Shown: positions 33,668 to 35,727 of the stretch, in pieces
How the letters are laid out: every line of letters starts with the position of its first letter
How positions within the stretch are numbered: position 1 is the first letter of the stretch
From: Gloeomargarita lithophora Alchichica-D10
GTDB taxonomy: Bacteria; Cyanobacteriota; Cyanobacteriia; Gloeomargaritales; Gloeomargaritaceae
Reading direction: 5' to 3'
DNA: 64,000 nt
Assembly (NCBI RefSeq): GCF_001870225.1
Contig: NZ_CP017675.1
Location: forward strand, 701,930-765,929
Made by a program: the position numbers and the translations under genes
The notes under the pieces: model-generated
The model's database searches: none
The model's input: only the letters and a program-made list of their open reading frames with translations
Told to the model about the DNA's origin: nothing

Positions 33668-35727
33668 ATGCCGTTTTCGATTGCTGAATTATTAGGAAAT
33701 TTGCCGGAAGATAAGTTAATCGCTCCCAAGGTGTTGGCCAAGAAGCTTTTTTGTGAGGATGAAACCGACCGGGGGCGTTTGAAAATCGCCCTGGATGCCC
33801 TGGCCAAGTTGGAGTTGGTCACCGAGGAATTTGGTAAATATCGGCGGTTGGCCGTGCCGGATGTGGTCAAAGCCCGGTTACGGTTTTCGCGGGGTAGTTT
33901 TTGGGCGATCCAAGATGAACCGGGGGCGGCGGATGTTTACATTCCGGCTCGCTATTTGGGGACGGCTTGGCATGGGGATCGGGGATTGGTCAAGGTGATG
34001 CGTAAAGGCCGCAATCGCCGCAGCCCGGAAGGGGAAGTCTTTGTGGTTTTGGAGCGGGCGATTACGGCACTGTTGGCGCAGGTGCAGGTGACGGAGACGG
34101 GTTACCTCGCCAAGCCGATGGATGAGCGGTTGAATATCACGGTCACGTTGCCGGAAACGGTGGCGGACTTGGCGGAGCAGTTGGTTTATGTGACCATCAA
34201 ACGCTATCCCCTTGCCCAGTTACCGGCGCAGGGGGTGGTGAAACGGGTCTTGGGCACGGATGCCCGCACGGCTGACCCGGCGACCCTGGTGTTGTGTAAA
34301 CACAATTTACTACCCAACCCGCCGGTGGGGTTGCCGAAAATGTTAGACGGGGGGGGGAGCAACCGCTCCGGCAGGATTTTCGAGAACGGGCGACCTGGGG
34401 GTTGGGTGGGTTGGCGGTGTCCTGGGAACCGGGGACGGACGGGGGACGGGTATTGGGGATTCATTTGCCGGATGCCACCGCCAGCATGACCCCGGAAACC
34501 CTGGTGGATTGGTATGCCAGCCAACAGGGGGCGAGTTTTGGGTTGGGGGATATTATTGCCCCGATGACTCCGCCCGTGCCAGCGCGCTCGGAATGGCCGA
34601 GTATTTCCCTGTGGGTGCAGGTGGATGCCAACGGGGGGGTCGGTGCCTATCGCATCGAACCGGGTTGGGTGCGGGTGGACGAGGCACCCCCGCCGGAACT
34701 GATCAACGATGTGAGCACCTGGGTGCTCCAGACCCAAAAACGACCGGGATTGGCCTTCACAGAAGAACCCCGGCTCACCCTGGATGAACATCCCACGGGG
34801 TTAGCCGCCGCCGGGGACGCAGGGGTAGCCCAGGGGTTGGCTATCCTGGCAAATCATTTGTTGGCACGGCATATGCAAGCGTTGCAACTGCCGGGTTTAT
34901 TCCGGGTGCAAGCCCCCCCGGATGCGGAAGCCTGGGAACGCTATCGTTTCCTGCTCACGGAATTGGGGCTGACCCCACCGGAGGAACTAGAGCTTGCTAC
35001 CCTTTTGCCCCTGATCCAAGCCCACGAACTGGCACCCCTCCTCCAGAATTTGTTTCTGGAACTGCTCAAACCCCCGACGGATAGCCTGCAACCGGGCGGG
35101 CATTTCGGGGTGGGAGTCGAACCCTACCTGCATGGGGTGGCCGCCTTTGAGCGTTATGCGGATTTGTTCAATCAACGGGTGCTGTGGGCGTTGTTTACCC
35201 AGGGGAAAGACCGGAAAAGTGCCCGCTCCAAGGAAACCATTGACCCCCGTAGCAGTGAATGTCATGGCCGGGTGGATTGGCCGGTACTCCCCACTGGGCT
35301 GCAGGAGGATTTGCAAAACCAGGCCCAACAACTTTTACCCCAACTCCAGGAGCGGGAGCGTGCCCATCGCCAAGCCCGGGAAGACTATCGCCATTTGGTG
35401 TGGTTGCACCGCTGTGATTTAACCCCCGGTCAGACTTTGCGGGGGCTGGTAGTGGGGGTCGAATCCTACGGCTCTTTTGTGGCAATTCAGCATACGCCCC
35501 TCCAGGGTTTGGTGCATGTGACGGCCTTGAAAAACGATTGGTATGAATTTCGCCCCAAACAACAGGCTTTGGTGGGACGGAAAACCAATGCCACCTTTGT
35601 GGTGGGAGCGGTCATGGAGGTGGTGGTCAAAGGCATTGACTATTACCGGCAACAGGTGGATTTGACCCTCCCGCCGGACATGGGCGATGAAACCCACGAG
35701 CCGGATGCCAGCCCCGCAGATGCCTAG
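33668..35727 (+). pseudogene. RNase II/R-family protein, frameshifted at a nine-G run and lacking catalytic aspartates
   Basis: Two overlapping frames make one RNB-family protein of about 686 residues. The first (33668 on) has the N-terminal helical and cold-shock parts (LRFSRGSFWAIQDEPGAADVYIP, RSPEGEVFVVLERA) and reads correctly to MLDGG near 34350. The second frame carries the RNB and C-terminal S1 domains (GQTLRGLVVGVESYGSFVAI). They join only if the nine-G run at 34349-34357 gains one G or loses two. The usual DxxxxDFDDA catalytic stretch is replaced by WGLGGLAVSWE, and the usual SPIRRYADL by GVAAFERYADL. So even in frame it looks like a non-catalytic RNA-binding relative. Confidence 0.75.

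What the first reader, a model, noticed from the sequence alone, without database searches (positions are those of the whole stretch)
34349..34357. Run of nine G at the frameshift in an RNase II-family gene
The protein reads correctly in one frame up to the G run and correctly in another beyond it (EQPLRQDFRERATWG). Ten G, or seven, would give one 680-odd residue protein. A long G run is a classic site for slipped-strand phase variation, transcriptional slippage or a sequencing mistake.
Basis: partly seen in the sequence, partly recalled or inferred. Interest (0 to 1): 0.6.

Follow-up and report, generated by a model that had tools for sequence, protein, structure and literature searches.

The report
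Miscounted G run splitting zam gene
A cyanobacterial gene (zam, for an RNase-like protein with no catalytic residues) looks cut in two at a run of nine Gs, but the same one-base shortfall breaks essential single-copy genes elsewhere in this genome, so it is most likely a counting error in the assembled sequence and not a switch.

Summary
Nine G lie at 34349-34357. The upstream frame (ORF 33668-34489) and the downstream frame (to 35727) differ by one base at the run, and 10 or 7 G would join them. All six congeners examined carry an intact 686-699-codon open frame, and the five aligned at nucleotide level have no long G run there. The gene is the cyanobacterial zam orthologue, a pseudo-nuclease of the RNase II/R family. 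I found 80 G/C runs of 9-10 in this genome. Of 58 inside genes, 54 read through and four break: zam, hisF, purK and a polysaccharide-deacetylase-like gene. All four lack one base. No intragenic break was found at runs of 6-8 (0 of 299). hisF and purK are single copy and needed for growth, so they cannot really be null. The genome shows no run of 11 or more, although 7-10 are expected. Downstream zam evolves under the same constraint as in intact congeners. Best reading: the assembly undercounts its longest G/C runs. The alternatives (recent indel or phase variant, transcriptional slippage, ribosomal frameshift) have no positive support, but only raw reads can exclude them. Low interest.

The parts
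33668..35727 (+). zam-type RNase II/R-family gene, interrupted in the assembly by a one-base frame break
   Evidence: Both halves match TIGR02063/TIGR00358 and RNB-family Pfam domains; CSD1 and family context match zam (PMC9145284); the six congeners examined have one open frame of 686-699 codons
34349..34357 (+). Run of nine G where the reading frame changes; +1 or -2 bases joins the frames
33902..34039 (+). Cold-shock / OB_RNB domain (CSD1) in the upstream frame; lacks both conserved Zam cysteines
   Evidence: PF08206 residues 79-124; alignment
34358..34489 (+). Out-of-frame tail of the upstream ORF (SNRSGRIFENG...), not coding in relatives
   Evidence: codon score favours the other frame
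34357..35727 (+). Downstream in-frame part of zam: degenerate RNB domain and S1 domain
   Evidence: PF00773 and PF00575; dN/dS about 0.16 against L003, as in intact congeners
34837..35196 (+). Recognisable C-terminal part of the RNB domain
   Evidence: PF00773 positions 203-324
35422..35667 (+). S1 RNA-binding domain
   Evidence: PF00575, E 9e-5

Best explanation
The nine-G run is most likely one base short of the true chromosome, a homopolymer undercount in the reads or consensus. The cell then carries an intact zam gene of about 686 codons. Shown: the frame break, intact congeners, selection on the downstream half, and three sister breaks (hisF, purK, a polysaccharide-deacetylase-like gene) at runs of 9-10 that all lack one base. 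Inferred: that these are reading errors and not real deletions, because a living prototroph cannot lack hisF and because no run of 11 or more appears in the assembly.
For: 80 distinct G/C runs of 9-10 were collected from the genome. Codon-frame analysis gives 54 intact and five switches, one of which is a real gene boundary (nusA/ylxR); the other four each need +1 base. No intragenic break was seen at runs of 6-8 (0 of 299; Fisher p = 6e-4). hisF is single copy (the only other hit is the 265-codon hisA-like paralogue), breaks inside its conserved VGGG-I motif, and is intact in congeners. purK is single copy and intact in congeners. There is no run of 11 or more in this genome, against 7-10 expected from its own length distribution. 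The downstream half has dN/dS 0.134/0.858, against 0.186/1.056 between intact congeners, and no further stops. A ten-G reading gives exactly the congener length. A survey of frame transitions takes unclustered ones with homologues as sequencing errors (PMC3711429).
Against: 54 other runs of the same lengths read through correctly, so the assembly is usually right at these lengths. The sequencing platform could not be established because the genome paper is not held. The excess of breaks over two congeners is only suggestive (4 of 58 against 1 of 92, p = 0.07). In hisF a real deletion of the base after the run would give the same letters.
Confidence: 0.76

Rival explanations
1. A real, recent one-base slip in the cultured strain (a null or phase-off allele of zam) caught in the sequenced DNA; replication slippage at G9-10 makes such alleles arise and revert.
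For: G runs of this length are hypermutable in several bacteria (general knowledge). The zam deletion in PCC 7002 gives only a mild growth defect (PMC9145284), so a null would be tolerated. Breaks are confined to the longest runs. The absence of decay is also compatible with a very recent event.
Against: The congeners have no long G run at this place, so there is no conserved switch. The same class of break hits hisF and purK, which a prototroph cannot lose. All four breaks go the same way.
Confidence: 0.14
2. A real G9 run is bypassed by RNA polymerase slippage, which adds a base to part of the mRNA so that full-length protein is still made.
For: It would reconcile broken frames with purifying selection in zam, hisF and purK at once.
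Against: In E. coli and Buchnera all homopolymer insertions during transcription were in A/T runs; G and C runs were not prone to slippage (PMC5574713). 54 in-frame runs of equal length would be corrupted by the same process.
Confidence: 0.06
3. Programmed -1 ribosomal frameshifting on the G run makes both a truncated and a full-length Zam.
For: A -1 slip on GGG-GGG restores the exact frame.
Against: No stimulatory structure follows the run (RNA fold z = +0.82, 161 of 200 shuffles fold as well). The run is not conserved in relatives. The truncated tail is not conserved.
Confidence: 0.03

Closest known systems
Zam (cyanobacterial RNB-family pseudo-nuclease, PMC9145284)
   Same: CSD1, CSD2, RNB and S1 order; orthologous to the longest-matching 758-833-codon proteins across cyanobacteria; acidic active-site motif lost; a separate intact Rnb in the same genome
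   Different: Shorter (about 686 codons); both redox cysteines called invariant in Zam are absent throughout the genus; frame broken in this assembly only
Homopolymer undercount in genome assemblies (singleton frame transitions, PMC3711429)
   Same: Break exactly at the longest homopolymers, unique to one assembly, intact in relatives, essential genes affected
   Different: Most runs of equal length are right, and the platform is not known to me
Poly-G phase-variable genes (as in Campylobacter and Neisseria)
   Same: G run of 9 inside a reading frame
   Different: Run not conserved, gene not surface-exposed, sister breaks in hisF and purK

Membership tests
Zam branch of the RNase II/R (RNB) family | Cold-shock, RNB and S1 domains in order | tested here: met
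   PF08206/PF17876, PF00773, PF00575 across the two halves
Zam branch of the RNase II/R (RNB) family | Loss of the acidic catalytic residues of RNB | tested here: met
   Aligned region reads LAVSWEPGTDGGRVLGIHLPDATASM where Rnb of the same genome reads YTIDDISTKEIDDGLSWE
Zam branch of the RNase II/R (RNB) family | Distinct from Rnb, which coexists in the genome | tested here: met
   A second gene with a full RNB domain at G000:C1:2458811-2459680
Zam branch of the RNase II/R (RNB) family | Two conserved redox cysteines in CSD1 | tested here: not met
   LRFSRGSFWAIQD in the window and in six congeners, against LRCSSKGFCFAIQD in most cyanobacteria; hence an orthologue that has lost this trait, filed on orthology and not on redox function
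Phase-variable gene | Repeat tract conserved or variable among relatives | tested here: not met
   Five congeners aligned at nucleotide level have at most five G at this place
Phase-variable gene | Length heterogeneity within a clone | not testable with these tools
   No reads available
Programmed -1 frameshift | Conserved slippery site with a downstream stimulatory structure | tested here: not met
   Site not conserved; fold z = +0.82
Assembly homopolymer error | Breaks confined to the longest runs and hitting essential single-copy genes | tested here: met
   4 of 58 at runs of 9-10, 0 of 299 at runs of 6-8; hisF and purK
Assembly homopolymer error | Reads disagree with the consensus | not testable with these tools
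   No reads; genome paper not held

The most novel reading that the evidence does not exclude
The G9-10 runs are real, and this cyanobacterium routinely makes functional HisF, PurK and Zam by adding a base at long G runs during transcription or translation, a slippage class not seen at G runs in E. coli or Buchnera.
Probability: 0.05. Interest if true: 0.7.

Novelty: not a real feature. Interest (0 to 1): 0.1.

Why it matters
If right, zam, hisF and purK in this reference genome (probably a Gloeomargarita, the lineage closest to plastids) should not be scored as pseudogenes or losses, and its longest G/C runs should be checked before any gene-loss claim. If wrong, slippage at G runs would be feeding essential genes, which would be surprising.

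Tried and rejected
Gene boundary instead of frameshift: rejected, because both halves match one family model consecutively and congeners have one frame. By contrast the apparent breaks at L083 (nusA/ylxR) and most of those at runs of 6-7 are boundaries. Old pseudogene: rejected, since there are no further stops and dN/dS equals that of intact congeners. Frameshift-stimulating RNA structure: none. Paralogue rescue: the only other RNB gene is the canonical Rnb, a different branch. Sequencing platform from the literature: not found.

Full report
Observation. The window has exactly nine G at 34349-34357. From ATG 33668 the frame is open through the run to a stop at 34489; from 34357 another frame is open to 35727. 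Codon usage switches frame at the run. Both halves match the same family models one after the other. Adding one base or removing two joins them. Adding one gives exactly the number of residues found in the congeners.

Identity. The window lies in a complete 3,049,282-base genome, which I take from memory to be Gloeomargarita lithophora D10; named relatives found by sequence are Gloeomargaritales VI4D9 and Gloeomargarita sp. SKYG116. The gene is the orthologue of cyanobacterial zam. It has cold-shock, RNB and S1 domains, the acidic RNB active-site motif is gone, and a separate intact Rnb sits elsewhere in the genome. PMC9145284 describes Zam as a catalytically degenerate RNB protein whose deletion slows growth mildly and alters pigmentation. 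Membership caveat: the two redox cysteines reported as invariant in Zam are missing in this whole genus.

Relatives at this site. Six congeners have one uninterrupted frame of 686-699 codons, and the five aligned at nucleotide level have at most five consecutive G there. The run is therefore private to this genome. Downstream of it the gene still evolves under the same constraint as in intact congeners (dN/dS about 0.16 against 0.17-0.18) with no further stop, so it is not a decayed pseudogene.

Genome-wide test. I collected 80 distinct G/C runs of nine or more from the same genome: 60 of length nine, 20 of length ten, none longer. Of these, 54 lie in genes that read through in one frame. Five show a same-strand frame switch. 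One of the five is the natural nusA/ylxR boundary. The other four are inside genes: zam (G9), hisF (G9), purK (C10) and a polysaccharide-deacetylase-like gene (G10). All four need one more base. In the 318 kb examined, 299 G/C runs of six to eight read through, and the apparent switches I inspected at those lengths look like gene boundaries or weak frames, not breaks within a gene. The confinement to runs of 9-10 has Fisher p = 6e-4. Two congeners give 0 of 48 and 1 of 44 by the same method. The excess in this genome is suggestive but not significant (p = 0.07).

Why error and not biology. HisF is needed for histidine synthesis and this genome has only one copy; the break falls in its conserved VGGG-I motif, and congeners are intact. 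PurK is also single copy and intact in congeners. A free-living phototroph cannot be null for hisF, so at least that break is either miscalled or bypassed. Transcriptional bypass is unlikely because G and C runs were not slippage-prone in E. coli or Buchnera (PMC5574713). Ribosomal bypass lacks a stimulatory structure and conservation. The missing tail of the length distribution (no run of 11 or more, 7-10 expected) fits an undercount at the top end. PMC3711429 takes singleton frame transitions with homologues as sequencing errors.

What stays open. I could not see reads and could not learn the platform. A real slip in the sequenced culture remains possible for zam itself, since its loss is tolerated elsewhere. 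The confidences given reflect that.

Noticed in passing
window 33902-34039 and L003-L008, L010: The CSD1 loop of Zam lacks both redox cysteines in all Gloeomargarita examined (LRFSRGSFWAIQD; the related genus L010 has IRYSRGSYWAVRE), although they are reported as invariant and essential for Zam function in PCC 7002. The redox-switch model may not apply to this lineage.
   Followed up: partly
L036 1501-1509 (genome 289279): hisF is broken at a G9 run inside its VGGG-I phosphate-binding motif; single copy, intact in congeners.
   Followed up: yes
L032 1501-1510 (genome 145267): purK is broken at a C10 run (gene on the minus strand); single copy, intact in congeners.
   Followed up: yes
L075 2000-2009 (genome 1872234): A gene with a polysaccharide-deacetylase-like C-terminus is broken at a G10 run; congeners have one open frame of 677-799 codons.
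   Followed up: partly
L237 1501-1509 (G004): In congener G004 a PP2C/RsbU-like gene switches frame at a G9 run, needing one base fewer or two more: the opposite direction to the four breaks here.
   Followed up: no
genomes G000, G002, G004: Gloeomargarita genomes carry 70-80 G/C runs of nine or more, mostly in frame inside genes, fewer than a first-order model predicts (about 290); only one other congener (G003, partly at contig ends) has many runs of 11 or more.
   Followed up: partly
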